Below are positions 13,445 through 49,704 of a DNA stretch of 64,000 nt, one piece after another. Position numbers and translations under genes: made by a program. How positions within the stretch are numbered: position 1 is the first letter of the stretch; every line of letters starts with the position of its first letter. Source of the stretch: Janthinobacterium sp. CG3 (GTDB lineage: Bacteria > Pseudomonadota > Gammaproteobacteria > Burkholderiales > Burkholderiaceae_D). Where the stretch lies: contig NZ_KB467824.1 of assembly GCF_000344615.1 (NCBI RefSeq), positions 4,748,367 through 4,812,366 of the forward strand, read 5' to 3'. The notes under the pieces are model-generated. The model ran no database searches and had not been told where the DNA came from. It saw nothing but the letters and a program-made list of their open reading frames with translations.

Positions 13445-13517
13445 TTATTTATACTATTTATATATAAATACGTAAAATAAAACGTATTTGTCATCCAATT
13501 TAGCTTGATGCATAGTG
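13445..13517 (+). promoter_or_regulatory. Nucleoside-regulon element, copy A
   Basis: One of three closely related elements (others at 43889-43962 and 49631-49704). Reading toward the TonB receptor it has TTATTTATA, 9 nt, TATAAAT, an A-rich stretch, GTATTTG, then TTGATGCATAGTG. ATTTATA and TATAAAT form an inverted repeat around a 9-nt spacer, a plausible regulator site. TTGTCA (13488-13493) and CATAGT (13511-13516), 17 bp apart, look like -35 and -10 boxes, placing the inverted repeat near -65, an activator-like position. The start codon is 274 nt downstream. Regulator unknown. Confidence 0.75.
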
Positions 13518-13589
13518 GGGCGACAAGCGATGTTAAATCGTTAAAATTATCGCTTTATAGCATGTTTTTAAGATGCTTTAGCCCCACTA
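13513..13589 (+). other. Nested inverted repeats in the TonB receptor leader
   Basis: TAGTGGGGC (13513-13521) matches GCCCCACTA (13581-13589) perfectly, and encloses two further hairpins: AAGCGAT/ATCGCTT (13525-13531 and 13549-13555) and AGCAT/ATGCT (13559-13563 and 13573-13577). Together they draw a three-way junction. The outer 5' arm overlaps the proposed -10 box, so it would be in the transcript only if the start lies upstream of 13513. The two inner hairpins would be transcribed in either case. Confidence 0.45.
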
Positions 13590-13791
13590 CGCCCGCGCCG
13601 CGAGGCCGCGTCGACAGCGTGTTTTTTGTGTCTTCGTGCCGCTGGAAATGTGTCATGGCCTTGACATATTTGATCATTACACTCTCGCCTCACGCCCGTA
13701 ACGGGATAGCTACAGCACAGTAAAAACGGGGGGTGTCGCGCTGACCGCGTACCGATCCCACAAAATAAAACAGTTTTTTAGGGGTACTACC
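13590..13791. other. Long 5' leader of the TonB receptor gene
   Basis: About 200 nt of untranslated sequence between the nested repeats and the ATG. It contains a CCCGTAACGGG hairpin near 13696-13706 and GTTTTTTAGGGG just before the start codon, where AGGGG could act as Shine-Dalgarno. I see no conserved riboswitch core and no convincing small gene. Confidence 0.4.
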
Positions 13792-16700
13792 ATGATCAAT
13801 CACAAACGGTTTCGGCTGACGCAGATAGCGCTAAGCCTGGCTATCGCGTTGGCGGTGGCACCGTCCTTCGCCCAGAACACCACGTCCGCCATCGGCGGGC
13901 GCATTTCCGGCAGCGACGGCCAGCCGGCCGGCGGCGCCACCGTCACCATCGTGCACACCGAGTCCGGCTCGATCAGCCACGTCGTCACCGACGCCGAAGG
14001 CCGTTACGTGGCGCGCGGCTTGCGCGCCGGTGGTCCGTACACGATCACGGTCAGCAAAAACGGCGTGGTCGAAAAACGCGAGGGCGTGTTTGTGCAACTG
14101 GCCGAAACCTCCAACGTCGACGCCACCCTGGGCGCGCCCATCCAGTCGGTGACCGTCACCGGCAACGCGGCCCGTTCCGACAAGTTCAGCAAGTCCAACA
14201 TGGGCGCCGGCACCAGCATCAGCGCGACCGAACTGGCGATGCAGGCGTCCATCCAGCGCAATTTGCAAGACTATGCGCGGTCCGATCCGCGCGTGTCGCA
14301 AACCGACAAGGAGCGCGGCGAAATGTCGGTCGGCGGCCAGAACTCGCGCTACAACTCGCTGACCATCGACGGCGTGGCCGTCAACGACACCTTCGGCCTG
14401 GAGCCAAGCGGCAGCCCGACGGCGAAGCAGCCGATTTCTATCGAGGCGATCCAGTCGGTGCAGGTAAACGTGGCCAATTACGACGTCACGCAAAAAGGCT
14501 ATACGGGCGGCAACGTTAACGCCGCCACGAAGTCGGGCACCAACACCGTCAAGGGCAGCGTTTATTACGTTTTCCGTAACGACAGCATGGTGGGCGAGCG
14601 CTTTAACGCCACCACCGGCGAGTACTATGAGGCGCCGCCGTTCCGCGAAACCACCAAGGGCGCGACGCTTGGCGGCCCCTTGATCAAGGATAAATTGTTC
14701 TTCTTCGCCAACGTCGAAGAGCTGATCAGCACCCGTACCACGCCAGCCTTCAGCCCGCTGGGCGGCCCGAAAACCAATGTCGGCATCACCCCGTCGACCA
14801 TCTCCAGCGCGCAAGAGATCGCCAAGTCGGCGCACGGCTGGGATGTCGGCACGGCCGAGGTGCCGGGCACGCCGGAGATGTCGGTGAAAGACACCCTGCT
14901 CAAGCTGGACTGGAACATCAGCGATACGCACCGCGCGATGATGCGTTATTCGAAGACCACGCAGTCCGAGCCGCGGTTCCCCGGCATTAGCGCCACCTCG
15001 CTGTCGCTCAGCTCGCAATGGAACACCCAGAAGAAGGATGTCGAAACCCTGGTCGGCCAGTGGTTTGCCGACTGGACCCCGACGTTCACCACCGAGTTCA
15101 AGGTGTCGGCGCGCGACTTCAATAGCATCCCCGTCAACAACTCGACGTCGCCGGCGGTCGGCCTGCTGTTCGCCGGCGCCTTGCCGCCGGGTTCGCCTTC
15201 CAGCATCAAGGTGGACAAGCGCTACCTCAATTTCGGCACCGAGCAAAGCAACCAGAACAACGTGCTGGGCACCAAGACCAAGGACGCCTACCTGGGCGCG
15301 AACTGGGCGCTAGGCGACCATGAAGTGAAATTCGGCGGCGATTACAGCAAAAACGACGTGTATAACGCGTATTTGCAGAACGTTAACGGCAACTACACCT
15401 TCGGTTGCATCTCCGGAAAATATGCGTTCAGCGCAAGCCCGATCGTCTGCGGTTCGGGCTTGAGCGCGGCGCTGGAAGAGCAAGTTATCCTGGACAACTT
15501 CCGCCGTGGCCGCCCGTCGAGTTATATGGTGCAAGTGCCGGCCAGCGGCGACAAGTTCGACGCCGCCGTGGCGCGCTTCACCCTGCAAAACTACGGCTTC
15601 TTCGCCCAGGACACCTGGACCGTCAACAAGCAGTTGACCGTCAGCTACGGCGTGCGGGTGGACGCGGCCCGCCTCGGCGACCGTCCGGCGGCCAATGCCG
15701 CCGCCGCCGCGCCCATGGTGGCCGGCAACGCCGCCAGCAAGACCAACCAGACCGGCGGTTTCGGGCTGGACAACACCCAAACCATTGATGGCCAAAACCT
15801 GGTGCAGCCGCGGGTCGGCTTCAACTACACCTTCGACAGCGCGCGCCCGATGCAGGTGCGCGGCGGCGCCGGCCTGTTCCAGGGCGCGGCGGCCAACGTC
15901 TGGCTGGCCAACCCGTTCAGCAACTCCGGCGTGGCCACCCGCATTGTCGGTTGCGGCGGTTCCTTCAAGCCTTGCCCTACCACGGACGGCACCTTCAGTA
16001 CCGACCCGTCCAAGCAGCCGGTCAGCTTCGTCGGCGCGCAGCCGGCCGCCAACGTCGACTTCCTGTCGCCGGACATGCGCCAGCCGTCGGTGTGGAAATC
16101 GAACCTGGCGTTTGAACACCAGTTGCCTTGGTACGGCATGGTGTTCGGCGCGGAGTACATGTACACCAAAACCAAGGACGCGATCTATTACCAGCATAAA
16201 AACCTGGGCGTGGCGTCGCGCATCGGCCGCGACGGCCGCGAGCTCTTCTACACGGACAATGGATACGACACTGCTTGCTGGCAGAACAACGGTACGCTGG
16301 TGTCCGCCTGCGGCGTGCGCACCCGCGCGTATAACAACAAGAGCTTCAACAACGTCCTGGTGGCGCAAAAAACCGAGAAGGGCGGCGGCAACCTCGCCAC
16401 CCTGTCGCTGAGCCGTCCGCTGAGCCAGGGCATAGGCTGGTCGATGTCGTACACCTACACCGACGCCACCGAGGTGTCGCCGCTGACGTCGTCGGTGTCG
16501 AACTCGAACTGGGCCGCCCGCGCGGTGTTCCATCCGAACGAGGAGAAGCTGGCCAATTCGAGCTACCTGGTGAAGGACCGCATCAACGCCATGGTGAACT
16601 GGCAGCATCGCTTCTTCTCGAGCTACAAGACCACGGTGGGCGTGTTCTACGAGGGACGCAAGGGCAAGCCGTACAGCTGGACCTACAACAACGACTTGAA

Positions 16701-17193
16701 CGGCGACGGCCAGGCCGGCAACGACCTGATGTACATTCCCAAGGCGCCGGGTTCGGGCGAAGTGGTGTTCGCCGGCGACACCGCCAGCAGCCATCTGAAC
16801 GAAGACCGCTTCTGGTCCGTCGTCAACGGCAACAAGGAATTGAAGCGCTCGATCGGCCAGCTTACCAGCCGCAACGATAGTTTCTCGCCATGGACGAATA
16901 GTATTGACATGCGTGTCAGCCAGGAAGTCCCGGGTTTCTTCAAAGGGAACAAAGGCATCCTGACCCTGGATTTCTTCAACGTCGGCAATATGATCAACAA
17001 AAAATGGGGTCGTATCAACGAGATCGGCTTCGCCACCAGCGGTGGCCAGTCGCGCAGCTTCGTCGACTATGGCGGCATGGTCGACGGCCGCTACGTGTAT
17101 CAAGTGAAGGACAAGGTGGAAGACTACGAAGTTCGCCAGGCCAAGGGCGAATCGCAGTGGGCGATCCAGGCCACGGTAAAGTACGAATTCTAA
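13792..17193 (+). CDS. TonB-dependent receptor with carboxypeptidase-regulatory-like domain
   Basis: An 1133-aa outer-membrane receptor. A signal peptide (cleavage near residue 27, SFA/QN) is followed by a CarboxypepD_reg-like beta domain (about 30-115, ISGSDGQPAGGATVTI), a possible TonB box (SVTVTG), a plug with GEMSVGGQNSRYNSLTIDG, and a long barrel ending in Phe (TVKYEF), as outer-membrane proteins do. This OmpA/Oar-like type often imports large or unusual substrates. Its place between a secreted deaminase and an exported nucleotidase, and its shared promoter element with nucleoside genes, suggest nucleoside, nucleotide or oligonucleotide uptake; the substrate is inference. Confidence 0.88.
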   Translation: MINHKRFRLTQIALSLAIALAVAPSFAQNTTSAIGGRISGSDGQPAGGATVTIVHTESGSISHVVTDAEGRYVARGLRAGGPYTITVSKNGVVEKREGVFVQLAETSNVDATLGAPIQSVTVTGNAARSDKFSKSNMGAGTSISATELAMQASIQRNLQDYARSDPRVSQTDKERGEMSVGGQNSRYNSLTIDGVAVNDTFGLEPSGSPTAKQPISIEAIQSVQVNVANYDVTQKGYTGGNVNAATKSGTNTVKGSVYYVFRNDSMVGERFNATTGEYYEAPPFRETTKGATLGGPLIKDKLFFFANVEELISTRTTPAFSPLGGPKTNVGITPSTISSAQEIAKSAHGWDVGTAEVPGTPEMSVKDTLLKLDWNISDTHRAMMRYSKTTQSEPRFPGISATSLSLSSQWNTQKKDVETLVGQWFADWTPTFTTEFKVSARDFNSIPVNNSTSPAVGLLFAGALPPGSPSSIKVDKRYLNFGTEQSNQNNVLGTKTKDAYLGANWALGDHEVKFGGDYSKNDVYNAYLQNVNGNYTFGCISGKYAFSASPIVCGSGLSAALEEQVILDNFRRGRPSSYMVQVPASGDKFDAAVARFTLQNYGFFAQDTWTVNKQLTVSYGVRVDAARLGDRPAANAAAAAPMVAGNAASKTNQTGGFGLDNTQTIDGQNLVQPRVGFNYTFDSARPMQVRGGAGLFQGAAANVWLANPFSNSGVATRIVGCGGSFKPCPTTDGTFSTDPSKQPVSFVGAQPAANVDFLSPDMRQPSVWKSNLAFEHQLPWYGMVFGAEYMYTKTKDAIYYQHKNLGVASRIGRDGRELFYTDNGYDTACWQNNGTLVSACGVRTRAYNNKSFNNVLVAQKTEKGGGNLATLSLSRPLSQGIGWSMSYTYTDATEVSPLTSSVSNSNWAARAVFHPNEEKLANSSYLVKDRINAMVNWQHRFFSSYKTTVGVFYEGRKGKPYSWTYNNDLNGDGQAGNDLMYIPKAPGSGEVVFAGDTASSHLNEDRFWSVVNGNKELKRSIGQLTSRNDSFSPWTNSIDMRVSQEVPGFFKGNKGILTLDFFNVGNMINKKWGRINEIGFATSGGQSRSFVDYGGMVDGRYVYQVKDKVEDYEVRQAKGESQWAIQATVKYEF

Positions 17194-17250
17194 TTGTCTC
17201 GCTGCGGGGAGCCGCGCGCCTTGGCGCCGCGGGTGCCGCATCGTAGCGAA

Positions 17251-17281
17251 ACGGCTGGCGGCGACACCGGCCGTTTTTTTT
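17251..17281 (+). terminator. Rho-independent terminator after the TonB receptor
   Basis: ACGGCTGG (17251-17258) pairs with CCGGCCGT (17267-17274) across an 8-nt loop with one G-T wobble, followed by a run of eight T. It lies about 57 nt after the receptor stop. Confidence 0.8.
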
Positions 17282-17346: not shown

Positions 17347-19035
17347 ATGACAAACTTCCTCCGCCCCCTCGCCGCCGCCGTCGCCCTCGCTTTGGCCCTG
17401 TCCGGCTGCGCCAGCCGCTCCACCGCGCCGGTGGAGATCAACCTGGTCGCGCTGAACGACTTCCACGGCAACCTCGACAGCAGTAAATTCCGCTACACCA
17501 GCGTGCTCGACAAGACCCAGCACACCATCGAGGCCGGCGGCGTCGACACGTTGGCGGCGGCGTTGCAGGCGTGGCGCCAGGAGGACCGCGAACTGCTGCT
17601 GATCGGCGCCGGCGACCTGGTCGGCGGCAGCCCGGCGATGTCGTCGATGTGGGCGGACGAACCCAGCATCGCCGCGCTGAACCTGCTGGGCCTGCGCGCC
17701 AGCTCGCTCGGCAACCACGAATTCGACCAAGGCCGCCTGGAACTGCTGCGCCAGCAGGAAGGCGGCTGCGTCTCGACCCGGCCGCAACAAGCCTGCCAGT
17801 TCGAGCCGTTTTTCCACGGCGCCAAGTTCAGCTACCTGGCCGCCAACGTGCTCGACCGCGCCAGCGGCAAGCCCTTCATGCCGGCCTACCGGATTGAAAC
17901 GGTGCGCGGGGTTAAGATCGGCTTGATCGGCGCGGTGCTCAAGGACACCGCCTCGGTGGTGCTGGCGTCCAGCATCGCCGGCCTGGAATTCATCGACGAG
18001 GCCGACGCCGTCAACCGCGTGCTGCCGGAGTTGCGCGAGCAGGGCGTCGGCGTGTTCGTGCTGCTGGTGCACCAGGGCGGCCACAGCGCCGACTATTTCG
18101 ACCAGCCAGACTGCGCCAACCTGGGCGGCCCGGTGGTCGATATCGCCAAGCGCCTCGACCCGGCTATCAGCGTCGTCGTCAGCGGCCATTCGCACACCGG
18201 CTACACCTGCCGCGTCGACGGCCGCCTCGTGACCCAGGCCGAGATGGGCGGGCACGTGCTCTCGCGCATCAAGCTCAGCGTCGATCCCGTCAGCAACAGC
18301 GTGCGCGAGGCCAGCGCGCGCAACGTCGTCATGACCCAGGGCACCTATCCGCCAGACCTGGTCATGGAAGAGTATTTGAAGAGCGTCAGGGAGCGCAGCG
18401 CGGCGGTGCTGTCGAAACCGGTGGCCCGGCTGGCCGTGGCCAGCGTCACGCGCGAACGCAACGACGCCGGCGAGTCGGCGCTGGGCAACCTGGTGGCGGA
18501 CTCCGCGCTGGCGGCGACCCGGTCCGCCGGCGCGCAGATCGCCTTCATGAACAATGGCGGCATACGCAAAGACCTCGACGCCGGCGCCGACCTGGTCAGC
18601 ACGGTGGGGCAATGCCAGATGGTGCTGCCGTTCGCCAACACCTTGGTCACGATGAGCCTGAGCGGCGCGCAAATCCGCGCCTTGCTCGAACAGCAATGGG
18701 TGCAGGACAAGGCCGACTCGCGCGGCCTGTTGCAGGTGTCGGACGGCTTTGCCTACCGTTGGGACGCCCGGCGGGCGCAGGGCCAGCGCGTGCTGCCCGG
18801 CAGCGTGCGCCTGAACGGCGCGCCGCTGGAGGATGCCAAGGTTTATCGTGTTGCGGTGAACAACTTCCTGGCCGAGGGCGGCGACAGTTTTCCGATGTTC
18901 AACCAGGGCGGCGACCGGGTTAATACGGGCATCCGCGACGGCGACGCGCTGACCGACTACCTGAGCCAGCGCGACCGGGCCGGCGTGCCGGCCGGCCGCG
19001 CGGCGCCCGCCGGCCGCATCCAGCGGGTGCAATGA
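17347..19035 (+). CDS. Lipoprotein 5'-nucleotidase / metallophosphoesterase
   Basis: A 562-aa UshA-like 5'-nucleotidase. The N terminus is a lipoprotein signal with lipobox LSGC (Cys21), so it is exported and membrane-anchored. Metallophosphatase motifs are ALNDFHGNL near residue 34, GAGDLVGGSP near 87, GNHEFDQG near 120 and SGHSHTGY near 280. The C-terminal nucleotidase domain has FMNNGGIRKDL and SDGFAYRWD for base stacking. It would dephosphorylate nucleotides released by the S1/P1 nuclease encoded 49 nt downstream. Confidence 0.92.
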   Translation: MTNFLRPLAAAVALALALSGCASRSTAPVEINLVALNDFHGNLDSSKFRYTSVLDKTQHTIEAGGVDTLAAALQAWRQEDRELLLIGAGDLVGGSPAMSSMWADEPSIAALNLLGLRASSLGNHEFDQGRLELLRQQEGGCVSTRPQQACQFEPFFHGAKFSYLAANVLDRASGKPFMPAYRIETVRGVKIGLIGAVLKDTASVVLASSIAGLEFIDEADAVNRVLPELREQGVGVFVLLVHQGGHSADYFDQPDCANLGGPVVDIAKRLDPAISVVVSGHSHTGYTCRVDGRLVTQAEMGGHVLSRIKLSVDPVSNSVREASARNVVMTQGTYPPDLVMEEYLKSVRERSAAVLSKPVARLAVASVTRERNDAGESALGNLVADSALAATRSAGAQIAFMNNGGIRKDLDAGADLVSTVGQCQMVLPFANTLVTMSLSGAQIRALLEQQWVQDKADSRGLLQVSDGFAYRWDARRAQGQRVLPGSVRLNGAPLEDAKVYRVAVNNFLAEGGDSFPMFNQGGDRVNTGIRDGDALTDYLSQRDRAGVPAGRAAPAGRIQRVQ

Positions 19036-20146: not shown

Positions 20147-20151
20147 CGTAT

Positions 20152-39781: not shown

Positions 39782-40869
39782 GCTGCGCTCCGTTTGCTGC
39801 GTTTGAGCATGGCCGCGATTGCCGGCGCGTAGAAGTTTTCCATCGCGCCGCAGAAGAGGATGATCAAACCCTGGATGAAGATGAAGGTCTCGGTCGGGAT
39901 GTTCGGTTTCTCCAGCGACAGGTCGAAGCCGCCCTGGATCAGCGCGCCGAACAGGATCGCCGACAGGAAGATACCAACCGGATGCTGGCGCCCCATCAGC
40001 GCGATGGCGATGCCGATGAAGCCGGCGCCGGCGGTGAAGTTCAGGCTCAGGTAGTGGGTCGAGCCCATGATGGAGTTGACCGAGCCGAGCCCGGCCAGCG
40101 CGCCCGAGATCAGCATGACGGCGATGATCATCTTGCTGATCGACACGCCGGCGTAGTGGGCGGCGTTCTGGTTCAGGCCGGTGGCGCGCAGCTTGAAGCC
40201 CCACGCCGAGCGCGTCATCATGACGCCGTAAATGGCCAGCGCGACGATGGCCAGCGGGAAGCTGACGTTGAGCGGGGTGTCGCCCAGCATCGGCAACCAG
40301 GTGTTCAGGCGCGGCATGGCGCCGCTGTCGGCGAACAGGCGGCTGGCGGTGTTTTGCTCGCCGACCGGGATCAGGTATTTGACGATGATGAAGTTCATCA
40401 GGCTGGCGGCGATGAAGTTGAACATGATCGTCGTGACGACGATGTGGCTGCCGCGCTTCGCCTGCAGGTAGCCGGGCAGGAAGGCCCATAGCGCGCCGAA
40501 CACGGCCGCGCCCAGCATGGCCGCCGGAATCAAGGCCCAGGCCGGCAGGCTGGAGTCGAACGCCAGCATGGCCAGCGTCAGGCCGAGGCCGCCGAAATAC
40601 ATCTGGCCCTCGCTGCCGATGTTGAACAGGCCGGCCTGCATCGCCACCGACACCGACAGGCCGGTGAAGATGAAGGTGCTGGCGTAGAACAGCGTGTAAC
40701 TGAGGCCTTCCGGGTTGATGATCGCGCTATTGACCAGAATGCCCAGCGATACGGCCGGGTTTTCACCCAGCAGGTAGATCACCAGGGCGGCTACCAGCAG
40801 CGCCGACAGCAAGTTTAAAACGGGCAGGACGACGGCGGTCGCCCAACGTGGCAAGTCGTTATTGTTCAT
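39778..40869 (-). CDS. Nucleoside ABC transporter permease 1
   Basis: A 363-aa permease partner with SVAMQAGLFNIGSEGQMYFG near residue 75 and GFKLRATGLNQNAAHYAGVSI near 223, the conserved cytoplasmic loops of BMP-type permeases. It starts 4 nt after the ATPase stop and overlaps the next permease, so subunits are produced together. Confidence 0.92.
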   Translation of the reverse strand: MNNNDLPRWATAVVLPVLNLLSALLVAALVIYLLGENPAVSLGILVNSAIINPEGLSYTLFYASTFIFTGLSVSVAMQAGLFNIGSEGQMYFGGLGLTLAMLAFDSSLPAWALIPAAMLGAAVFGALWAFLPGYLQAKRGSHIVVTTIMFNFIAASLMNFIIVKYLIPVGEQNTASRLFADSGAMPRLNTWLPMLGDTPLNVSFPLAIVALAIYGVMMTRSAWGFKLRATGLNQNAAHYAGVSISKMIIAVMLISGALAGLGSVNSIMGSTHYLSLNFTAGAGFIGIAIALMGRQHPVGIFLSAILFGALIQGGFDLSLEKPNIPTETFIFIQGLIILFCGAMENFYAPAIAAMLKRSKRSAA

Positions 40870-40873
40870 ATTA

Positions 40874-42397
40874 TTATGCCCCCCCGCCCATCAACAGGCC
40901 GATGCGGGTGGTATCGAATTGCTCGATGGGCAGTTCTCCAGTGATGCGTCCGCCGCACATGACGAGGATGCGGTCGGCCAGCGAGCGCACCTCCTCCAGT
41001 TCGACCGACACCAGTAAGATGGCGACGCCGGCGTCGCGCAGGGCCAGCAGTTGCGTGTGGATGCTTTCGATGGTGCCGATGTCGACGCCGCGGGTCGGTT
41101 GCCCGACCAGCATCAGCGTCGGTTTGGCCAGCACTTCGCGGGCGATGACGACTTTTTGCTGGTTGCCGCCGGACAACAGGCCGATGCGCAGCTCCGGGTT
41201 GGCCGGACGCACGTCGAAGGTTGTCAGCAGTTCGGCGCAGCGCGCCGCGATGGCCTTGAAGTCGAACAGGCCCCAGCGGTTGCTGAGCTGGTCCTGGTAG
41301 CCGAGCATGGTGTTGTGCATTACCGAAAAATTCTTGACGACGCCGTCGCGCAGCCGGTCTTCGGGAACGTGGGCGATGCCCAGTTCGCGGAACAGGCGCG
41401 GCAGGCCGTCGGCGTCGCCGCGTTTGGCGAACGGCAAGTCCTGGCCGAGGAAGGCCACCGCGCCCGAGCTGGGCAGGCGCATGCCCGACAGGATTTCCAT
41501 CAGCTCGCTCTGGCCGTTGCCGGAGACGCCGGCGATGGCGACAATCTCGCCGGCGCGCAGGCTGAAGTTGATGCCGGCCAGCAGCTTGACCTGCTGCGCG
41601 TTGACCAGTTGCACATTCTTTACGTCGAGCACGACCGCGCCCGGTTGGTAGGGCGCGCGCGGCAGGTGGTTCTGGATCGGCCGGCCCACCATCATGTTCG
41701 CCAGTTGCTCCTTGGTGGTGCCGGCGGTGGCGACGGCGCCGACGACGCGCCCGCCGCGCATCACCGTGACGGTGTCGGTGATGTCCAGGATTTCCTGCAA
41801 CTTGTGGGTGATCAGGATGATGGTCTTGCCCTGTTCCTTGAACAGGCGCAGGATGTCGAACAGCGACGCGGTTTCCTGCGCCGTCAGCACGGCGGTCGGC
41901 TCGTCGAGGATCAGGATGTTGGCGCTGCGGTAGATCTGCTTGAGGATCTCGACGCGCTGCTGGGCGCCGACCGACAAGTCTTCGATCTTCGCCAGCGGAT
42001 CGACGTCGAGCCGGTAGCGCTGGCAGATCTCGCGCAGCTTGGCCTCGGTGGCGGCGCGCTGGCCGGCCAGCTGGAAGCCGCCCTCGGTGCCGAGCATCAC
42101 GTTGTCGAGAACGGTGAAATTTTCCACCAGCATGAAGTGCTGGTGCACCATGCCGATGCCCAGGCGGATCGCCTCCTGGCTGTTGCGGATCGGCTGGTGC
42201 TGGCCGTCGAGCAGGATGTCGCCGCCGTCGGCCCGGTAATAGCCGTACAGGATGCTCATCAAGGTCGACTTGCCGGCGCCGTTCTCCCCCACCAGGCCGT
42301 GGATCGAACCCTTGGCGATGGCGAAGCTGACGTCGGCGTTCGCCTTCACCTGTCCAAAGTGCTTGGAGATGCCGCGAAATTCTACTGCTGCTTGCAT
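40874..42397 (-). CDS. Nucleoside ABC transporter ATP-binding protein
   Basis: A 507-aa double ABC ATPase. The first half has Walker A GENGAGKST near residue 37, signature LSVGAQQR near 143 and Walker B ILILDEPT; the second has a degenerate Walker A-like GVSGNGQSE near 297 and signature LSGGNQQK near 400. Two fused ATPase halves are usual for sugar/nucleoside importers (RbsA/BmpC type). ATG 42397 removes an upstream non-homologous extension. Confidence 0.92.
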   Translation of the reverse strand: MQAAVEFRGISKHFGQVKANADVSFAIAKGSIHGLVGENGAGKSTLMSILYGYYRADGGDILLDGQHQPIRNSQEAIRLGIGMVHQHFMLVENFTVLDNVMLGTEGGFQLAGQRAATEAKLREICQRYRLDVDPLAKIEDLSVGAQQRVEILKQIYRSANILILDEPTAVLTAQETASLFDILRLFKEQGKTIILITHKLQEILDITDTVTVMRGGRVVGAVATAGTTKEQLANMMVGRPIQNHLPRAPYQPGAVVLDVKNVQLVNAQQVKLLAGINFSLRAGEIVAIAGVSGNGQSELMEILSGMRLPSSGAVAFLGQDLPFAKRGDADGLPRLFRELGIAHVPEDRLRDGVVKNFSVMHNTMLGYQDQLSNRWGLFDFKAIAARCAELLTTFDVRPANPELRIGLLSGGNQQKVVIAREVLAKPTLMLVGQPTRGVDIGTIESIHTQLLALRDAGVAILLVSVELEEVRSLADRILVMCGGRITGELPIEQFDTTRIGLLMGGGA

Positions 42398-42470
42398 ATG
42401 TTCACTAGGTAAAAACGCGCCGCGCGGAGACTGTGGTCCCCGGCGGCGCGCTTTGAGTTGACGTGTGAGT

Positions 42471-43466
42471 TTAAACCGGGCAGCTGTTGCCGGCGCGGTA
42501 GTCGATGACCTTGATCTTGCCGTCAATGATGTCCTTGCGGGCGCCGAGCACGCGCTTTTCAATCTCCGGCGTGATCAGCTTGCGGTTGTGCTCGTCCAGC
42601 GCCCAGTCGACGCCGCCTTCCTTCAAACCCTTGCTGACGACGCCGGCCTTCCAGGTGCCGTTCTTGACTTGCATGAAACTGTCGTAGACGGCGTTGTCGA
42701 CGCGCTTGACCATTGAGGTCAGCATCGTGCCCGGGTACAGGTGGTTCTGGTTGGAATCGACGCCGATCGCCAGCTTGCCTTTTTCCTTGGCCGTTTGCAG
42801 CGTGCCCATGCCGCTGCCGCCGGCCACCGCGAATACCACGTCGACGCCGCGCTCGAACTGCGAGCGCGCCAGTTCGCCGCCCTTGGCCGGGTCGTTCCAG
42901 GCGCCGGAGGTGGTGCCGACCATGTTTTGCGTCACTTCCGCCTTCGGATTGACGAGCTTTGCGCCTTGCGCGTAGCCGCAGGCGAAGGTGCGGATCAGCG
43001 GGATGTCGATGCCGCCGATGAAACCGAGTTTTTTCGACTTGCTGGCCATTGCCGCCGCCACGCCGACCAGATAAGAGCCTTCTTCTTCCTTGAACAGCAC
43101 GGAATTGACGTTATTGCCGGGCGCGGTGCCGTCGATCAGCACGAATTTCACGTTGGGAAATTCCTTGGCGACCTTTTGCACGGCTTGCGTCTGGGCGAAG
43201 CCGATCGATGCGATCAGATCGAGTTTTTTGCGCGCCAAACCGCGCAGCACCTGCTCGGCCTGGGTGTCGCTGGACGCCTGCACTTCGATGAAGGAAATAT
43301 TGGTCTCTTTCTTGAAGCGTTGTGCGCCTTCGAAAGCGGACTGGTTGAACGACTTGTCGAACTTGCCGCCGGCGTCATACACGATGCCCAATTTTGGGTC
43401 CGCCGCGGACGCGCTAGCCGTCATAAACAAGGCTGCGATCGTCAAACTAAGTTGTGTAAGTTTCAT
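42471..43466 (-). CDS. BMP family nucleoside-binding protein
   Basis: A 331-aa periplasmic substrate-binding protein. The signal peptide MKLTQLSLTIAALFMTASASA is followed by ADPKLGIVYDAGGKFDKSFNQ, the BMP/PnrA N-terminal motif for purine-nucleoside binding; FIGGIDIPLI and FAVAGGSGMG follow. ATG 43466 has AGGAG seven bases upstream. First gene of the transporter operon, preceded by a ~420-nt leader and regulon element copy B. Confidence 0.92.
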   Translation of the reverse strand: MKLTQLSLTIAALFMTASASAADPKLGIVYDAGGKFDKSFNQSAFEGAQRFKKETNISFIEVQASSDTQAEQVLRGLARKKLDLIASIGFAQTQAVQKVAKEFPNVKFVLIDGTAPGNNVNSVLFKEEEGSYLVGVAAAMASKSKKLGFIGGIDIPLIRTFACGYAQGAKLVNPKAEVTQNMVGTTSGAWNDPAKGGELARSQFERGVDVVFAVAGGSGMGTLQTAKEKGKLAIGVDSNQNHLYPGTMLTSMVKRVDNAVYDSFMQVKNGTWKAGVVSKGLKEGGVDWALDEHNRKLITPEIEKRVLGARKDIIDGKIKVIDYRAGNSCPV

Positions 43467-43862
43467 GAATTGGCTCCTGGAAGTTCGATATTGTATATTT
43501 TTTATAGACGAAGCCGCTAATTCGCTCGTTTTACCGCCGTATGCGCCAGCCTTGCGCGCCAACCATGCCTTGATCGCAATCTTGTAGCATCATCACAACA
43601 GTTTCCGCATACCGTTGTGGAAACGCCGCCGCTCAACTTGTTGCGTCCGCGCGCATCGCTGTTGCCACCGCGCCACGCCGGGCGCCGGACGCGGCGCGCC
43701 GCGGTTTGTATACATACCTGTCCGTGCTGCACGCGTTGGCGTCTGCCGCCGGCGCCGCGCCGCCGAGTGAAACGCGGGTGCCGCGGCACTTTTTTTAGCC
43801 GCCGCCGCCGCCGCCGCCGCGGCTTTCCGCGGCGCGTATCACGCTGCCTTTTTGTTAAGCAC
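43467..43862 (-). other. Long leader of the nucleoside transporter operon
   Basis: About 400 nt of untranslated DNA between element B and the binding-protein start. It contains a (GCC)n microsatellite at 43798-43820, a run of seven T next to a GTGCCGCGGCAC palindrome (43779-43796), and otherwise GC-rich sequence without a recognisable gene. Confidence 0.45.
43798..43820. repeat. GCC trinucleotide microsatellite
   Basis: Seven or more consecutive GCC units in the transporter-operon leader. Slipped-strand length change here could alter the mRNA leader; nothing shows that it does. Confidence 0.8.
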
Positions 43863-43888
43863 ACGAACCGCACAGGGACTTGGTTCGT
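43863..43888. promoter_or_regulatory. Inverted repeat at the start point of the transporter operon
   Basis: ACGAACC (43863-43869) and GGTTCGT (43882-43888) are perfect inverted 7-mers with a 12-nt spacer, directly adjoining regulon element B at its -10 side. It could be a repressor site around +1 or a hairpin at the 5' end of the mRNA. Confidence 0.5.
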
Positions 43889-43962
43889 CACTATGCATCA
43901 TGCTATATATGTATGACAAATACGATTTTATTTAGCTATTTATATGATCGACATATAAATAA
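43889..43962 (-). promoter_or_regulatory. Nucleoside-regulon element, copy B
   Basis: On the minus strand this 74-bp stretch has the same ordered blocks and spacing as copies A and C: TTATTTATA, 9 nt, TATAAAT, GTATTTG, TGATGCATAGTG. TTGTCA and CATAGT are 18 bp apart. It points toward the BMP transporter operon (start 43466). Because the AT-rich half is an inverted repeat, it could also influence the second TonB receptor, which starts 207 bp away on the other side. Confidence 0.78.
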
Positions 43963-44168
43963 ACAGCACCATTTTGTGATTTTCAGTGAATATTTTTCCT
44001 GCTAGCATGACCAATACTTTGCATTTTGCAAAGCCGGAAACTGTCAAAACGGCCTGTGTTGGAGGTGCGTTTGCGCATCCCGGCAGACCCGCCGAATGCC
44101 CGCGCCGCGCCGCCCAAGAGCCGCTGTACAGAGTTGAAACTGGTGTTTACCCCCATAGGAGTTGGTCG

Positions 44169-46445
44169 ATGATGAAAACAAATGAGAACAATCCGCCGCG
44201 CCGGCATGCCGCGCGTTCGCTGATCGCGCTGGCGGTGGCCGCGGCTTTCCCGCTGCACGCGGCGATCGCCCAGGAAGCGCCGGAGGCCGCCAAGGCCCAG
44301 CCCGGCCAACTGGAAACGGTGATCGTCACCGCGCAGCGTCGTTCGGAAAACATCAAAGACGTGCCGATGGCCATCTCCACCATGAAGGGCGAGAAACTCG
44401 ACGTATTGACCGCCGGCGGCCAGGACGTGCGCTTCATGTCGGGCCGCACGCCGAGCCTGAACGTGGAATCCGAGTTCGGCCGCTCCTTTCCGCGCTTCTA
44501 CGTGCGCGGCCTGGGCAATATCGACTTCGACTTGAACGCCTCGCAACCGGTCGGCCTGGTCTACGACGACGTGGTGCAGGAAAATCCGGTGCTGAAAGGC
44601 TTCCCGGTGTTCGACGTGGAGCAGATCGAAGTGCTGCGCGGCCCGCAGGGCACGCTGTTCGGGCGCAACTCGCCGGCCGGCGTGGTCAAGTTCGAGTCGG
44701 TCAAGCCGACCAATAAGCGGGAAGGTTACTTTAGCGGCGGCCTGGGCAACGACGGCGTCGTCAACCTGGAAGGCGCCTACAACCTGCCGCTGAACGAACA
44801 ATGGGCGGCCCGCGTCTCGCTGCAATCGCAGACGCGCGACGACCGCGTGCGCAATCCGCGTTCGACCGGCACCCAGGAACTGGAAGGCTACGACGACAAG
44901 GCCGCGCGCCTGCAACTGTCGTTCAAGCCGAGCAAGGACTTCGGCGCCTTGTTCAATGTGCACCACCGCAAGATGGAAGGCAGCGCCACCTTGTTCCGCG
45001 CCAACATCATCAAGAAGGGTAGCAACGAACTGGTCGACGGCTTCGACTACGACAACTACCCGACCGACGGCATCAACGACCAGACCCTGACCAGCACCGG
45101 CACCAGCCTGCGGCTGCGCTGGGACCTCGACGGCGTGACCTTGCATTCGATCAGCGGCTACGAGAAGGCCGAGTATTCCAGCCGCGCCGACGTGGACGGC
45201 GGCTACGGCGCCTCCTACGCGCCGCCGATGGGTCCCGGGTTTATCCCGTTTACCGCCGAAACCGGCGACGGCTTGCCGAAGCACCGCCAGTTGTCGCAGG
45301 AATTCCGGGTCGAGTCGAACACCAAGGAGCGCCTGCAATGGATCGCCGGCGTGTACGCGTTCAACGAGAAGATCACGGTCGACAGTAACAGCTACGACAC
45401 GCTGAACCAGAATAAACTCAACGGTTTCGCGCAGCAACAGCAGGAAAGCAAGTCGTGGGCCTTGTTCGGTTCGCTGAACTATGCGATGAGCAATGTCTGG
45501 AAAGTGCGCGCCGGCCTGCGCTACACCGACGACCAGAAGGACTTCAGCGCCGTGCGCACCATGGATCCGCGCATACCATCGAGCTATGTTGGCGCCATCG
45601 GCCCGCTCACGGCCAAGCCCGAGTCGACCAACTACAGCTGGGACTTGAGCACCAACTACGAGCTGACCAAGGAAACCAATGTGTACGCGCGCATCGCCAC
45701 CGGCTACCGCGCGCCGAGTATCCAGGGGCGCATCCTGTTCGGCGACACCATTTCGATCGGCGATGCCGAGAAGAACCTGTCGTACGAAGCCGGTATCAAG
45801 CAAGACCTGTTCAACAAGCGCGCGCGCCTGTCGGCCACGGTCTACCAGTACCGCGTGAAGGATTTGCAATTGACGGCCGGCAGCGGCGCGGTCAACCAGA
45901 ACCGCCTCGTCAACGCTGAAAAAGCGGTTGGCCAGGGTGTCGAGCTGGACTTCCAGGCGATCCTGTCCGACGAGTTCCGCCTGACCCTGGGCGGCAGCTA
46001 CAACGACACCGAAATCAAGGACCCGAACCTGTTCGTGGCGACCTGCGGCAACGGTTGCACCGTGACCTCGCCCGCCGGCCCCGGCGCCAACACCTCGCTG
46101 ATCAACGGCAATCCATTGCCGCGCGCGCCTAAGTGGACCGGCAACGTCACGCTGCGCTACAGCAAGCCGATTGGCGAGGGCGAGTTCTACGCCTACACCG
46201 ACTGGACCTACCGCTCGACCTACAATATGTTCCTCGACGAAGCCAAGGAATACACCGCCAAGTCGCTGGTCGAAGGCGGCCTGCGCGCCGGCTACAAATG
46301 GGCGGACGGCAAGTATGAAGTGGCCGCCTACGGCCGCAACATCACCAACAAGGTGCAGTTGATCGGCGCGATCAACTTCAACAACCTGACCGGCATCGTC
46401 AACGAACCGCGCAGCTACGGCGTGCAGTTCAAGGCCAACTTCTAA
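44169..46445 (+). CDS. TonB-dependent receptor
   Basis: A 758-aa outer-membrane receptor. Signal peptide to about residue 34 (AIA/QE), TonB box ETVIVTAQRR near 47, plug with PRFYVRGLGNIDFD and EVLRGPQGTLFGRNSPAGVV near 155, then a 22-strand-type barrel ending YGVQFKANF with terminal Phe. ATG 44169 follows AGGAG; a second ATG is next to it. It diverges from the nucleoside ABC transporter, which suggests the outer-membrane step for the same substrates; this is inference. Confidence 0.9.
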   Translation: MMKTNENNPPRRHAARSLIALAVAAAFPLHAAIAQEAPEAAKAQPGQLETVIVTAQRRSENIKDVPMAISTMKGEKLDVLTAGGQDVRFMSGRTPSLNVESEFGRSFPRFYVRGLGNIDFDLNASQPVGLVYDDVVQENPVLKGFPVFDVEQIEVLRGPQGTLFGRNSPAGVVKFESVKPTNKREGYFSGGLGNDGVVNLEGAYNLPLNEQWAARVSLQSQTRDDRVRNPRSTGTQELEGYDDKAARLQLSFKPSKDFGALFNVHHRKMEGSATLFRANIIKKGSNELVDGFDYDNYPTDGINDQTLTSTGTSLRLRWDLDGVTLHSISGYEKAEYSSRADVDGGYGASYAPPMGPGFIPFTAETGDGLPKHRQLSQEFRVESNTKERLQWIAGVYAFNEKITVDSNSYDTLNQNKLNGFAQQQQESKSWALFGSLNYAMSNVWKVRAGLRYTDDQKDFSAVRTMDPRIPSSYVGAIGPLTAKPESTNYSWDLSTNYELTKETNVYARIATGYRAPSIQGRILFGDTISIGDAEKNLSYEAGIKQDLFNKRARLSATVYQYRVKDLQLTAGSGAVNQNRLVNAEKAVGQGVELDFQAILSDEFRLTLGGSYNDTEIKDPNLFVATCGNGCTVTSPAGPGANTSLINGNPLPRAPKWTGNVTLRYSKPIGEGEFYAYTDWTYRSTYNMFLDEAKEYTAKSLVEGGLRAGYKWADGKYEVAAYGRNITNKVQLIGAINFNNLTGIVNEPRSYGVQFKANF

Positions 46446-46466
46446 ACAAGGGAGCGCCACCCCGCG

Positions 46467-46501
46467 GCCCCCGCACATCGCAAGGTGTGCGGGGGCTTTT
46501 T
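46467..46501. terminator. Bidirectional terminator
   Basis: GCCCCCGCACA (46467-46477) pairs with TGTGCGGGGGC (46486-46496), followed by a T-rich tail. It separates the TonB receptor from the convergent LysR gene and could serve both strands. Confidence 0.85.
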
Positions 46502-46525
46502 GCGTTGCAGGCGCGCTTGGCGCGG

Positions 46526-47434
46526 CTAGTCGGCGCGGGCCGGCGGGTTGATGATGTTGAGGAAGGCGCGCACCACCGGCGCGTCGTCCAGCGTGGTGTA
46601 GCTGATGTACAGGTTGGCGGACGGCGGGTTGGTCTTGATCGGCAGGAATACCACGCCGGGCCAGCCGATGCGGCTGGTGGTTTCCGGCAGCAGCGTGTAA
46701 CCCAGGCCGGCGCCGACCATCGCCAGCAGCGTCTGCGGCTCGGACGCCTCCTGGAAAATGAAGGGCTGGAAGCCGGCCTTGACGCAGCATTGCACCAGGT
46801 AGCGCGGGAAGGCCGACTTGTCGAGCGCCAGCGTCAGCATCGGCTCGTGTTCCAGGTCGCTCAGCTCGATCGCACTTTCCTTCGCCAGCGCGTGGTGCTC
46901 GTTGACGGCCACGCAAACGTTTTCGCGGAAGCACAGCTCCTGGCGCAGGTTGTCGCGGCGCAGGTCGTCGTCGTTGAGCTTCGGCTCGCGCCAGAAGCCG
47001 ACGTCGATCTGCTTGGCGCGCAGAGCCTCGTACTGCACGTTCGGGCCGGACTCGTGCAGCGTCCAGGTGACGCGCGGATACTTGGTTTGGAACTCTTCGA
47101 GCAGACTGGGAATCGGCCCCCACATGGCCGAGCCGACGATGCCCACGCGCAGCCGCCCAACCTCGCCGCGGTCGATCTGGCGGATCGTGTCTATCGTCAT
47201 GCGCATTTTCGCCAGCAGGTCCGCGGCCTCCGACATCAGCGCCTTGCCGGCCACGGTCAGCTCGAAGGTGCGGGTGGTGCGGGCGAACAGGCGCACGCCC
47301 AGTTCGCTCTCCAGCTTCATGATCTGCTGGCTCAGCGGCGGCTGCGATATGTGCAGCCGCTCGGCGGCGCGGCTGAAGCTCTTTTCCTCGGCGACGGCGA
47401 GAAAATATTTTAACTGTTTCAGGTCGATGGACAT
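46526..47434 (-). CDS. LysR family regulator
   Basis: A 302-aa LysR-type regulator with HTH KSFSRAAERLHISQPPLSQQIMKLE (about 18-42) and a typical effector domain (GRLRVGIVGSAMWG; LLAMVGAGLGYTLLPE). It lies 7 nt after psuG on the same strand, so it may be co-transcribed with the pseudouridine genes, and is convergent with the TonB receptor. A candidate regulator of the local nucleoside genes, without direct evidence. Confidence 0.87.
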   Translation of the reverse strand: MSIDLKQLKYFLAVAEEKSFSRAAERLHISQPPLSQQIMKLESELGVRLFARTTRTFELTVAGKALMSEAADLLAKMRMTIDTIRQIDRGEVGRLRVGIVGSAMWGPIPSLLEEFQTKYPRVTWTLHESGPNVQYEALRAKQIDVGFWREPKLNDDDLRRDNLRQELCFRENVCVAVNEHHALAKESAIELSDLEHEPMLTLALDKSAFPRYLVQCCVKAGFQPFIFQEASEPQTLLAMVGAGLGYTLLPETTSRIGWPGVVFLPIKTNPPSANLYISYTTLDDAPVVRAFLNIINPPARAD

Positions 47435-47441
47435 GGCGTTG

Positions 47442-48365
<924 letters not shown>

Positions 48366-48368
48366 GGT

Positions 48369-49505
48369 TCAGTCCAGGGGAAAAAAAGTGGAGATCGGCT
48401 GCGACAGGTCGAAGCTATGGATTTCGTCGAGCACGTCGGGCGCTAGCAGCGGCGACACCGTGGCGTCCGATTCGAGCGTCATCGCGGCCACTTTCAAGCC
48501 GCGGCGGCAGGCCAGCTTCAAGTCGCCGCTGCTCTGGTATAGCGACCAGCAGACCGCGGCGGCGAAGGCGTCGCCGGCGCCGGTGACGTCGACCGTTTGC
48601 ACCTCCAGCGCCGGCAGGTGGGCGACGCCGTCGGCGCAGCTGTAGTACACGCCGGCGCCGGCGCAGGTGACGATAAGGTGCTGCGCGCCCTGCGCCTGCA
48701 CGGCCAGGCTGGCCTCGCGCACGGCGGCCTGGTCGGGCAGGGCGTGGCCGACCCGGGTTTCCAGCTCGCCGCGGTTGAGGATCAGCAGATGCAGGCCGCG
48801 CAGGTCGAGCGGCAGGTGGCGCATCTTCGGCTGCGACACCGCCACCAACACCAGCGGCACGCTGTCGCGCAGCGCGTCGGCCAGCAGCGAGGCGACGGCT
48901 TCGAGCGGCAAATTCAAGTCCGCCACCGTCAGCGCGGCGGCGGCGCGTTGCGGCGCGCGCCCGGCCAGGAACTGCGCCGTCAGCGCGTCGTACAACTGCA
49001 TATCGGCCAGCGCCAGCACCATCTCGCCGCGCTCGTCGAGGACCGCCGTGTAGGTGCCGCTGCAGGTGTTGGCCAGGCGCAGACTGCCGCGCGTATCGAT
49101 GCCGGCGGCCTCGGCGTGGGCTTGCAGCGCGGCGCCGGCGGCGTCGTCGCCGAACACCGTCAACAGCGCGGCCGGCACGCCCAGGCGCGCCAGGTTCTCG
49201 GCGATATTGCGGGCCACGCCGCCGAAGACCTCCTCGGCGCTGGCTGGGTTCGACGTGCCCATCTGCAGCGTCGCCAGCGTGCGCAGCTTGCGGTCCAGAT
49301 TGGCCGCGCCGATGCACATCACCGGCCGGCTGTCGGGCAGCACGTAGGCGCGCCCGAGCAGGCGGCGCTCGCGCATCAGACCGGCGATATGGCCGGCCAC
49401 GGCCGAGCGCGACAGGCGTAGCTCCACCGCCAACTCTTGCTGCGAAATGAAGGGGTTGGCGCGGATCAGCCCATACAACTGGTCTTTTTTCGAAAGGTCG
49501 GTCAT
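48369..49505 (-). CDS. psuK: Pseudouridine kinase with N-terminal HTH
   Basis: A 378-aa PfkB-family kinase that phosphorylates pseudouridine for PsuG. Residues about 1-55 form a winged helix (ISQQELAVELRLSRSAVAGHI), an unusual regulatory addition; the kinase part has FGGVARNIAENLARLG near 95 and the catalytic anion hole TGAGDAFAAAV near 310. PsuK followed closely by PsuG is the standard pair. The HTH may let the kinase regulate its own operon. Confidence 0.92.
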   Translation of the reverse strand: MTDLSKKDQLYGLIRANPFISQQELAVELRLSRSAVAGHIAGLMRERRLLGRAYVLPDSRPVMCIGAANLDRKLRTLATLQMGTSNPASAEEVFGGVARNIAENLARLGVPAALLTVFGDDAAGAALQAHAEAAGIDTRGSLRLANTCSGTYTAVLDERGEMVLALADMQLYDALTAQFLAGRAPQRAAAALTVADLNLPLEAVASLLADALRDSVPLVLVAVSQPKMRHLPLDLRGLHLLILNRGELETRVGHALPDQAAVREASLAVQAQGAQHLIVTCAGAGVYYSCADGVAHLPALEVQTVDVTGAGDAFAAAVCWSLYQSSGDLKLACRRGLKVAAMTLESDATVSPLLAPDVLDEIHSFDLSQPISTFFPLD

Positions 49506-49516
49506 GGCATAATGGG

Positions 49517-49526
49517 ATTGTACAAT
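49517..49526. promoter_or_regulatory. Palindrome upstream of psuK
   Basis: ATTGTACAAT is a perfect 10-bp palindrome starting 12 bp before the psuK start. It is a plausible operator for the HTH domain of PsuK itself or another regulator. Confidence 0.4.
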
Positions 49527-49630
49527 TGTTAGTGATCGTAAACATATGTTTTACAGCTGTCAAACGAGGTTCCCTACGCTGTTGTCGCGTTCGCTCGTTT
49601 GGGGCTGTTTACGCTGTCTTATCATACGGC

Positions 49631-49704
49631 TTATTTATATTGGTTTTGTATAAATGTGGAAGAAAAATGGTATTTGCCATACATATGGCGGTTGATGCAT
49701 AGTG
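49631..49704 (+). promoter_or_regulatory. Nucleoside-regulon element, copy C
   Basis: Same ordered blocks and spacing as copies A and B: TTATTTATA (49631-49639), 9 nt, TATAAAT, GTATTTG (49670-49676), then TTGATGCATAGTG ending at 49704. TTGCCA and CATAGT are 18 bp apart. It points toward xapA-deoB-deoC (xapA start 49874) and leaves a leader of about 160 nt. Confidence 0.78.

What the first reader, a model, noticed from the sequence alone, without database searches (positions are those of the whole stretch)
13445..49704. A 74-bp element shared by three nucleoside loci defines an unrecognised regulon
Stretches at 13445-13517, 43889-43962 (minus) and 49631-49704 share ordered blocks at almost fixed spacing: TTATTTATA-N9-TATAAAT-N14-GTATTTG, then CAT and TGATGCATAGTG. 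Only one base of gap is needed. Each is noncoding and points to a nucleoside-related transcription unit: the 1133-aa TonB receptor, the BMP ABC transporter and xapA-deoB-deoC. The N9 between the arms ATTTATA and TATAAAT is not conserved, as expected of a dimer-binding site. TTGTCA/TTGCCA and CATAGT 17-18 bp apart then look like a promoter, with the site near -65 (activator-like). Regulator unknown; candidates in the window are the LysR (46526), DeoR (34314) and the HTH of PsuK. I do not know this motif from CytR, DeoR or NrtR.
Basis: partly seen in the sequence, partly recalled or inferred. Interest (0 to 1): 0.85.

Follow-up and report, generated by a model that had tools for sequence, protein, structure and literature searches.

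The report
XapR-type switch governing nucleoside scavenging genes
A short DNA switch, found three times in this bacterium, is most likely the docking site of a LysR-type regulator related to E. coli's xanthosine switch XapR, and it ties the uptake and breakdown of nucleosides (building blocks of DNA and RNA) into one control circuit.

Summary
In detail: the genome holds exactly three copies: ATTTATA-N9-TATAAAT, N14, GTATTTG, N20-21, CATAGT. It is an operator plus promoter. In 116 sampled family genomes, strong copies occur in exactly the 26 that carry the LysR gene at 46526-47434; DeoR, PsuK and a LysR paralogue do not track it. This LysR passes the NCBIfam equivalog that E. coli XapR belongs to. 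Upstream of xapA in Enterobacteriaceae the architecture recurs: palindrome-N14-GTATTNG in 22 of 32 loci, none in 100 shuffles. Targets: xapA-deo, the BMP importer, TBDT1133/5'-nucleotidase. So this is an enlarged XapR-type regulon, not a regulon without kin. XapR is known for xapAB in E. coli; coverage from outer membrane to catabolism, in three promoter geometries, looks new in the papers I could search. Binding, effector and transcript starts are inferred.

The parts
13445..13517 (+). Operator-promoter copy 1: palindrome 13447-13469, GTATTTG 13484-13490, CATAGT 13511-13516; predicted +1 at 13523, palindrome centre -65; points to the 1133-aa TonB receptor
   Evidence: orthologous site after add in 24 of 25 other element-bearing genomes (counted by hand)
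43889..43962 (-). Operator-promoter copy 2: palindrome 43938-43960, GTATTTG 43917-43923, CATAGT 43890-43895; predicted +1 at 43883, centre -66; points to the BMP importer operon
   Evidence: M > BMP in 24 of 25 other genomes (counted by hand) and 72 sites in 80 named loci
49631..49704 (+). Operator-promoter copy 3: palindrome 49633-49655, GTATTTG 49670-49676, CATAGT 49698-49703; predicted +1 at 49710, centre -66; points to xapA-deoB-deoC
   Evidence: psuK | M > xapA in 24 of 25 other genomes (counted by hand) and 79 sites in 80 named loci
44000..44008 (+). TGCTAGCAT, predicted extended -10 of the divergent TBDT2 promoter; hexamer 44003-44008, predicted +1 at 44015, same palindrome centred at -66
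   Evidence: exact match, offset 62; 32 of 53 named TBDT2-side loci have it (<=1 mismatch) at offset 62/63
49621..49626 (-). TATGAT, predicted -10 of psuK-psuG-lysR, predicted +1 at 49614; the palindrome would cover about -41 to -19 of this promoter
   Evidence: offset 29; 64 of 79 named psuK-side loci have TATNAT (<=1 mismatch) at 29/30
46526..47434 (-). LysR-type regulator, XapR equivalog; proposed regulator of all three elements
47442..48365 (-). psuG, Indigoidine_A family (pseudouridine-5'-phosphate glycosidase family, name recalled)
48369..49505 (-). psuK, PfkB kinase with N-terminal HTH; first gene of psuK-psuG-lysR
49874..50713 (+). xapA, xanthosine/purine nucleoside phosphorylase, 66% identical to E. 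coli XapA
   Evidence: (TIGR01699 410 bits, cut-off 370.9)
50746..51939 (+). deoB-type gene (Metalloenzyme superfamily; phosphopentomutase inferred from context)
51951..52892 (+). deoC-type aldolase
52905..55289 (+). aldehyde dehydrogenase
55417..56739 (+). deoA-type pyrimidine nucleoside phosphorylase
56759..57178 (+). cytidine deaminase (cdd)
42471..43562 (-). BMP/PnrA substrate-binding protein
40874..42562 (-). ABC ATPase of the importer
38810..40869 (-). two permease genes of the importer (39778-40869 and 38810-39778)
44166..46445 (+). TBDT2, TonB-dependent receptor divergent from BMP (start codon not settled)
13792..17193 (+). TBDT1133, TonB-dependent receptor with carboxypeptidase-regulatory domain
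17347..19035 (+). 5'-nucleotidase, possibly co-transcribed with TBDT1133 (inferred from spacing)

Best explanation
The 74-bp element is the operator plus promoter of a XapR-type LysR regulator encoded at 46526-47434. A dimer binds the palindrome ATTTATA-N9-TATAAAT (the LysR T-N11-A box, inside TA-N9-TA) centred at -65/-66. A second dimer is inferred to touch GTATTTGYCA at -35, and with a nucleoside-type effector it recruits RNA polymerase to TTGYCA-N17/18-CATAGT. It switches on xapA-deo, the BMP importer and TBDT1133/5'-nucleotidase. The same palindrome lies 66 bp before the divergent TBDT2 promoter (second activation geometry) and over the presumed -35 region of psuK-psuG-lysR (autorepression geometry). 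Shown: the sequence, its conservation and register, co-occurrence with lysR, and its match to enteric xapA promoters. Inferred: binding by this protein, activation, autorepression, effector.
For: Co-occurrence: LysR orthologues (E <= 1e-80) in 26 of 116 family genomes; profile hits of 40 bits or more in exactly the same 26. Of these, 15 genomes contributed nothing to the profile. Three other genomes have only E 0.0015-0.008 hits. Rivals: DeoR in 12 of the 26 and in 2 without the element; PsuK in 5 without the element and missing, at E <= 1e-70, in G019, which has it; LysR paralogue L249 in 1 of 116 at E <= 1e-75. Family: E. coli XapR and the window LysR both pass NF007439 (531 and 319 bits, cut-off 290); XapR's best hit in this genome is this LysR; its HTH is 97-100% identical in five orthologues against 76-91% for the rest of the protein. 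Operator: in 8.5 kb around E. coli xapABR the best profile hit lies upstream of xapA (E 0.0028). With the window's own arms, 16 of 32 enteric xapA upstreams reach shuffle p <= 0.02. Palindrome-N14-GTATTNG, <= 2 mismatches: 22 of 32, 0 at spacings 12, 15 and 16, 6 at 13, none in 100 shuffles. In 17 of these 22 TATAA starts 21 bases after GTATTNG, the distance of CATAGT in two of the three window copies. Literature (passages of PMC7205307): xapAB has two XapR sites, one partly over -35 and one upstream whose removal dramatically reduces the response to xanthosine. Mirror promoter: TGCTAGCAT (<= 1 mismatch) in 41 of 53 TBDT2 flanks (shuffle mean 0.6, maximum 3), 32 at offset 62/63, exact in the window and in 4 of 4 TBDT2 homologues found elsewhere in relatives' genomes.
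Against: No binding or expression data. lysR and xapA co-occur perfectly, so co-occurrence alone cannot separate 'regulator' from 'linked cluster'. In the tree the own-genome paralogue L249, not this LysR, sits weakly with enteric XapR (93/87; its bootstrap had not settled and some branches are long), so strict orthology is open; the reverse search in E. coli was not possible. L249 itself was not run against NCBIfam. The enteric core is ATYRATA rather than ATTTATA in most species, and xapR itself was seen in only 7 of 32 enteric loci, the fetched stretches being short. The generalised pattern ATYNATA-N9-TATNRAT, GTATTNG and TGCTAGCAT were chosen after looking at the sequences. Ten of 32 enteric loci do not match the composite at two mismatches. 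In E. coli the profile's hit was on the distal palindrome and opposite strand, though one search finds a proximal copy in register. psuK-side TATNAT is common by chance (74 of 79 against shuffle mean 56, maximum 67); its fixed offset is the stronger point. 21 of 53 TBDT2 flanks lack TGCTAGCAT at offset 62/63. Paralogues L250 and L251 have HTH identities to this LysR (61%, 56%) like that of E. coli XapR (61%), so HTH identity does not single out XapR.
Confidence: 0.88

Rival explanations
1. Another regulator (DeoR 34314, the HTH of PsuK, or the second XapR-like LysR elsewhere in the genome) binds the element; the linked LysR is a bystander.
For: All are DNA-binding proteins by domain; DeoR and PsuK lie in the window; L249 is in the XapR clade.
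Against: DeoR in 12 of 26 element genomes and in 2 without it; PsuK in 5 genomes without the element and absent at E <= 1e-70 from G019; L249 in 1 of 116 genomes at E <= 1e-75. Regulators outside these were not screened.
Confidence: 0.06
2. The palindrome acts in the RNA (a leader hairpin or riboswitch) instead of as DNA.
For: Inverted arms of 7 bases and long predicted leaders downstream of the element.
Against: The conserved -35/-10 spacing puts the palindrome upstream of the start; the only Rfam match in the window at the gathering scores is a 5S rRNA; the arms are kept as sequence in the 91-site alignment (read by eye, no covariation count was run); the same palindrome appears to be used from its other side by TBDT2.
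Confidence: 0.02
3. The palindrome is bound by the LysR as a repressor of all units, released by nucleosides.
For: The psuK side has the palindrome over its presumed -35.
Against: At the three main promoters and TBDT2 the predicted centre is at -65/-66, a place from which LysR proteins activate (PltR box -74 to -53, passages of PMC3382589); E. coli XapR is an activator (passages of PMC7205307, and PMC2395238).
Confidence: 0.05
4. The copies are remnants of a mobile repeat with no common function.
For: An IS110-type transposase gene lies at 36743-37894.
Against: Only three copies in the genome, each in orthologous position across genera, with a variable N9 and a constant frame.
Confidence: 0.01

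Closest known systems
E. coli XapR at xapAB
   Same: Same NCBIfam equivalog for the regulator; same XapA enzyme (66% identity); two binding places, one at -35 and one upstream (passages of PMC7205307); palindrome-N14-GTATTGG-N21-TATAAA found here upstream of E. coli xapA.
   Different: E. coli has a second palindrome 25 bp further upstream, a xanthosine permease XapB, and xapAB as target. Here the three units hold an ABC importer, a 5'-nucleotidase and the deo genes, with two TonB receptors, and lysR follows psuK-psuG.
PunR (YdhB) at punC, E. coli
   Same: LysR-type activator of a purine nucleoside transporter with a palindromic site (passages of PMC8376909).
   Different: Its motif TsttwTCAAwAwwwTTGaaGGCA does not resemble ATTTATA-N9-TATAAAT.
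CytR regulon
   Same: Controls nucleoside uptake and catabolism genes (abstract and passages of PMC3454398).
   Different: LacI family, TGCAA/TTGCA half-sites between CRP sites (passages of PMC3454398); not seen as conserved blocks in the element (by eye).
Generic LysR promoter logic (T-N11-A box, RBS and ABS)
   Same: T-N11-A palindrome about 65 bp upstream and a second place at -35; PltR's box lies at -74 to -53 (passages of PMC3382589).
   Different: One palindrome is shared by two mirror-image promoters at equal distance, and another copy covers the presumed promoter of the operon that encodes the regulator.

Membership tests
LysR-type regulator of the XapR group | LysR HTH and substrate-binding domains | tested here: met
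   HTH_1 91.3 bits, LysR_substrate 128.3 bits
LysR-type regulator of the XapR group | passes the equivalog model that E. coli XapR belongs to (NF007439/PRK09986; the model's own description is only 'LysR family transcriptional regulator') | tested here: met
   319 bits against cut-off 290; E. coli XapR 531
LysR-type regulator of the XapR group | strict orthology to E. coli XapR | tested here: inconclusive
   forward best hit met; tree places paralogue L249 nearer to enteric XapR with 93/87 support; reverse search not available
LysR-type regulator of the XapR group | travels with xapA | tested here: met
   same 26 of 116 genomes
LysR-type regulator of the XapR group | operator upstream of xapA in common with enteric xapA promoters | tested here: met
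LysR-type regulator of the XapR group | activation in response to xanthosine | not testable with these tools
   no expression data
PunR regulon | TsttwTCAAwAwwwTTGaaGGCA site | tested here: not met
   motif from PMC8376909 passages compared by eye with the 91-site alignment
CytR regulon | TGCAA/TTGCA half-sites | tested here: not met
   motif from PMC3454398 passages compared by eye
DeoR (34314) regulon | regulator present wherever the site is | tested here: not met
   12 of 26
NrtR regulon | NrtR site and NUDIX-HTH regulator | not tested
   no search was made

The most novel reading that the evidence does not exclude
In the Janthinobacterium-Duganella-Massilia group a local xanthosine switch has become the master regulator of nucleic-acid scavenging, from extracellular nuclease (sites beside ExeM-like nuclease operons in 8 of 26 genomes, not in this one) through two TonB receptors, 5'-nucleotidase and ABC importer to phosphorolysis. 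One palindrome is read in three geometries: forward activation, mirror-image activation of a receptor, and occlusion of the operon encoding the regulator. The effector may have shifted from xanthosine to a broader nucleoside or pseudouridine signal.
Probability: 0.4. Interest if true: 0.68.

Novelty: new variant of a known kind. Interest (0 to 1): 0.56.

Why it matters
It names a regulator for a group of environmental bacteria's nucleoside scavenging genes, and it gives the XapR group a testable operator: ATYRATA-N9-TATYRAT, N14, GTATTNG, N21, -10. That includes E. coli, where one paper calls the two XapR sites at xapAB low-evidence (PMC7567609, passage). It also predicts, from promoter register alone, co-regulation of two TonB receptors whose substrates are unknown, which makes them candidates for outer-membrane uptake of nucleosides or nucleotides.

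Tried and rejected
DeoR, PsuK and paralogue L249 as regulators. RNA element: at the gathering scores one Rfam match in the window, a 5S rRNA. Mobile repeat: three copies only. A mirrored GTATTNG on the divergent side, as a symmetric promoter: present in 1 of 153 at N14, rejected; the divergent TBDT2 side has a different -10. The site in G052 between a 298-aa gene and a pullulanase gene points at the end of a gene and I make nothing of it.

Rows dropped: of the rows, two short opposite-strand hits of about 18 bits (G011, G052) were not carried into, and four weak ones (G068, G073, G110, one in G018; E 0.0015-0.008) had no locus there and were not followed. The counts of 91 sites use 24 bits as the floor. 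In one search matches shorter than 200 residues were left out (L247, L229, L235).

Literature searches for an XapR regulon beyond xapAB or in Oxalobacteraceae. None of the listings shows one, but of 31 papers listed for the word I opened six (PMC7205307, PMC7567609, PMC12844172, PMC2395238, PMC8743547, PMC3454398), in passages only. PMC12844172 adds that HusR also activates xapA in E. coli (passages). The founding papers PMC177358 and PMC93943 are not held. RegPrecise was not available. No structure was predicted and no effector pocket compared.
Full report
OBSERVATION. The three stretches exist where stated and share TTATTTATA-N9-TATAAAT, then GTATTTG, then TGATGCATAGTG. One search gives the register: arm gap 9, palindrome to GTATTTG 14, GTATTTG to CATAGT 20 (TonB copy) or 21 (BMP and xapA copies). 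In the 64-kb window the palindrome pattern with up to 3 mismatches is expected 0.02 times by chance and matches only at these three places. In the whole 6.27-Mb genome the distal half occurs 3 times and its reversed control 0 times, and a profile of the element finds these three only, plus two opposite-strand readings of them.

CONSERVATION. A looser pattern of the proximal half found copies in 11 of 116 sampled genomes of the family, own genome included, with no reversed-control hit. Those examined sit in orthologous places. In the alignment of 15 copies ATGCATAGT is invariant although it was not part of that search pattern. A sequence profile from these 15 then found copies of 40 bits or more in 26 of 116 genomes. 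Three further genomes had only E 0.0015-0.008 hits. In the 26 genomes 91 sites score 24 bits or more: 76 at the three target places, 15 elsewhere. By hand count, each of the three places is occupied in 24 of the 25 other element-bearing genomes: after add and before TBDT, before BMP, and between psuK and xapA. In four add-side genomes (G045, G052, G108, G109) no TBDT1133 match follows the site; in G108 a different TonB-receptor plug protein does. In G098 the contig ends just past the site. In G094, G108 and G111 the BMP match begins 756-1,348 bp from the site. G113 lacks the BMP site and G019 the add site. In G019 lysR is divergent from one element that heads an ABC importer-xapA gene run, and a second element precedes BMP. 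In 80 named loci fetched around LysR relatives (Janthinobacterium, Duganella, Massilia, Pseudoduganella, Rugamonas and a few unassigned; the best 80 of 206) every locus has at least one site. There are 153 sites: 79 psuK | M > xapA, 51 TBDT2 | M > BMP, 21 lysR | M > BMP, 2 TBDT2 | M with no BMP match beside it; these loci span only about 21 kb around lysR. From contig lengths (G005's 113,306-base contig and NZ_NEGZ01000009.1) I infer that the window's genus is Janthinobacterium.

WHICH REGULATOR. LysR 46526-47434 has orthologues at E <= 1e-80 in exactly the 26 genomes with strong elements. Fifteen of the 26 contributed nothing to the profile. xapA has the same distribution, so this test alone cannot tell regulator from linked target. 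PsuK (30 genomes) occurs in five without the element and is missing at E <= 1e-70 in G019, which has it. DeoR occurs in 12 of the 26 and in 2 others. The closest own-genome paralogue L249 occurs in 1 of 116 at E <= 1e-75. The LysR's DNA-binding region is 97-100% identical in the five orthologues compared, against 76-91% for the rest (G019's more distant copy: 89% and 62%). Other own-genome LysR paralogues have HTH identities to it as high as E. coli XapR's, so the HTH alone does not name the group.

WHAT KIND OF LYSR. It scores 319 bits on NF007439, cut-off 290; E. coli XapR scores 531 on the same model. It is the best hit of E. coli XapR in this genome, 41% identical. The tree puts enteric XapR, L249 and this group in one clade (100/99), with L249 on the enteric side (93/87); its bootstrap had not settled. 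So I claim membership of the XapR group, not strict orthology. The adjacent enzyme passes the xanthosine phosphorylase model and is 66% identical to E. coli XapA.

CROSS-CLASS TEST. In 8.5 kb around E. coli xapABR the best profile hit was in the xapA-yfeN gap, E 0.0028, on the strand opposite to xapA. Scored with the window's own arms, 16 of 32 reach shuffle p <= 0.02. With a pattern relaxed after seeing these (ATYNATA-N9-TATNRAT), 26 of 32 match with at most one mismatch against 0.42 expected. The composite palindrome-N14-GTATTNG, with N14 taken from the window, matches 22 of 32 with at most two mismatches; spacings 12, 15 and 16 give 0 and 13 gives 6; 100 shuffles give none. In 17 of the 22 TATAA begins 21 bases after GTATTNG, the register of CATAGT in two of the three window copies. 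Two enteric loci (L222, L247) have the exact arms ATTTATA-N9-TATAAAT. E. coli has two palindromes: a proximal one in this register and one 25 bp further upstream. PMC7205307 (passages) reports two XapR sites at xapAB, one partly over -35 and one upstream whose removal dramatically reduces the response to xanthosine. These relatives are not independent samples, and xapR was within the fetched stretch in only 7 of 32.

THREE PROMOTER GEOMETRIES. Forward: GTATTNG (<= 1 mismatch) at exactly N14 in 153 of 153 named sites (the profile contains this block, so the sites were partly chosen for it) against 1 of 153 on the other side. TBDT2 side: TGCTAGCAT, not in the profile but chosen after viewing the flanks, occurs with at most one mismatch in 41 of 53 (shuffle mean 0.6, maximum 3), 32 at offset 62/63. 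The window has it exactly at offset 62, and 4 of 4 TBDT2 homologues found elsewhere in relatives' genomes have it exactly at 63. Its hexamer starts at the same distance from the palindrome as CATAGT does on the other side, so one palindrome is centred at -66 of two opposite promoters. psuK side: TATNAT at offset 29/30 in 64 of 79 (74 anywhere, shuffle mean 56, maximum 67); TATTAT in 63 of 79 (shuffle mean 28, maximum 40), 59 at 29/30. The palindrome would then cover the -35 region of psuK-psuG-lysR, the usual place for LysR autorepression (general knowledge of the family).

MECHANISM AND LIMITS. Most likely the LysR binds the T-N11-A palindrome, shifts or adds a dimer at GTATTTG on effector binding, and activates; this is the RBS/ABS scheme of the family (passages of PMC3382589). 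Not shown: binding, activation, effector, start sites. Xanthosine is E. coli's effector; here the gene content (pseudouridine, purine and pyrimidine nucleosides) leaves it open.

NOVELTY. The regulator family, its operator position and its xapA target are known in E. coli. I saw no description, in the listings of the searches made, of a XapR regulon with importer, TonB receptors and deo genes, nor of the operator pattern across two classes. I therefore call it a new variant of a known kind.

Noticed in passing
L068 455-530, L069 3333-3409, L070 3247-3323, L075 3085-3159, L079 2932-3007, L083 3032-3106, L084 3253-3330, L087 3007-3080: In 8 of 26 genomes a weaker element (24-41 bits) lies after an operon of a large extracellular-nuclease-like gene (ExeM/NucH model passed in the two tested, L069 and L084) and a short PEP-CTERM-like gene (model passed in L069), pointing at a PhoB-like response regulator and a LuxR-type gene (domains confirmed in L069). 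The other six were matched by gene order and reading only. The own genome lacks the site.
   Followed up: partly
   Followed up: partly
L071, L072, L073, L086: In four relatives of the own genus a TBDT2 homologue elsewhere in the genome has the element with both its forward part and the divergent TGCTAGCAT, although in L071 and L072 no gene start lies close on the forward side; the leftover forward promoter may be a relic.
   Followed up: partly
L258 5878-6789 (G000:C1:1587877-1588785): A second XapR-like LysR gene, found in only this one of 116 genomes at E <= 1e-75; its target is unknown.
   Followed up: partly
window 13523-13792, 43562-43883, 49710-49874: If transcription starts 7 bases after CATAGT, the leaders are about 269, 321 and 164 nt long; the BMP leader holds a CGG run. 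No Rfam match in them at the gathering scores.
   Followed up: no
L214 6990-7012 and 6965-6987: E. coli xapA has two tandem palindromes of the operator type, starting 133 and 108 bp before the ATG, candidates for the two XapR sites called low-evidence in PMC7567609 (passage).
   Followed up: partly
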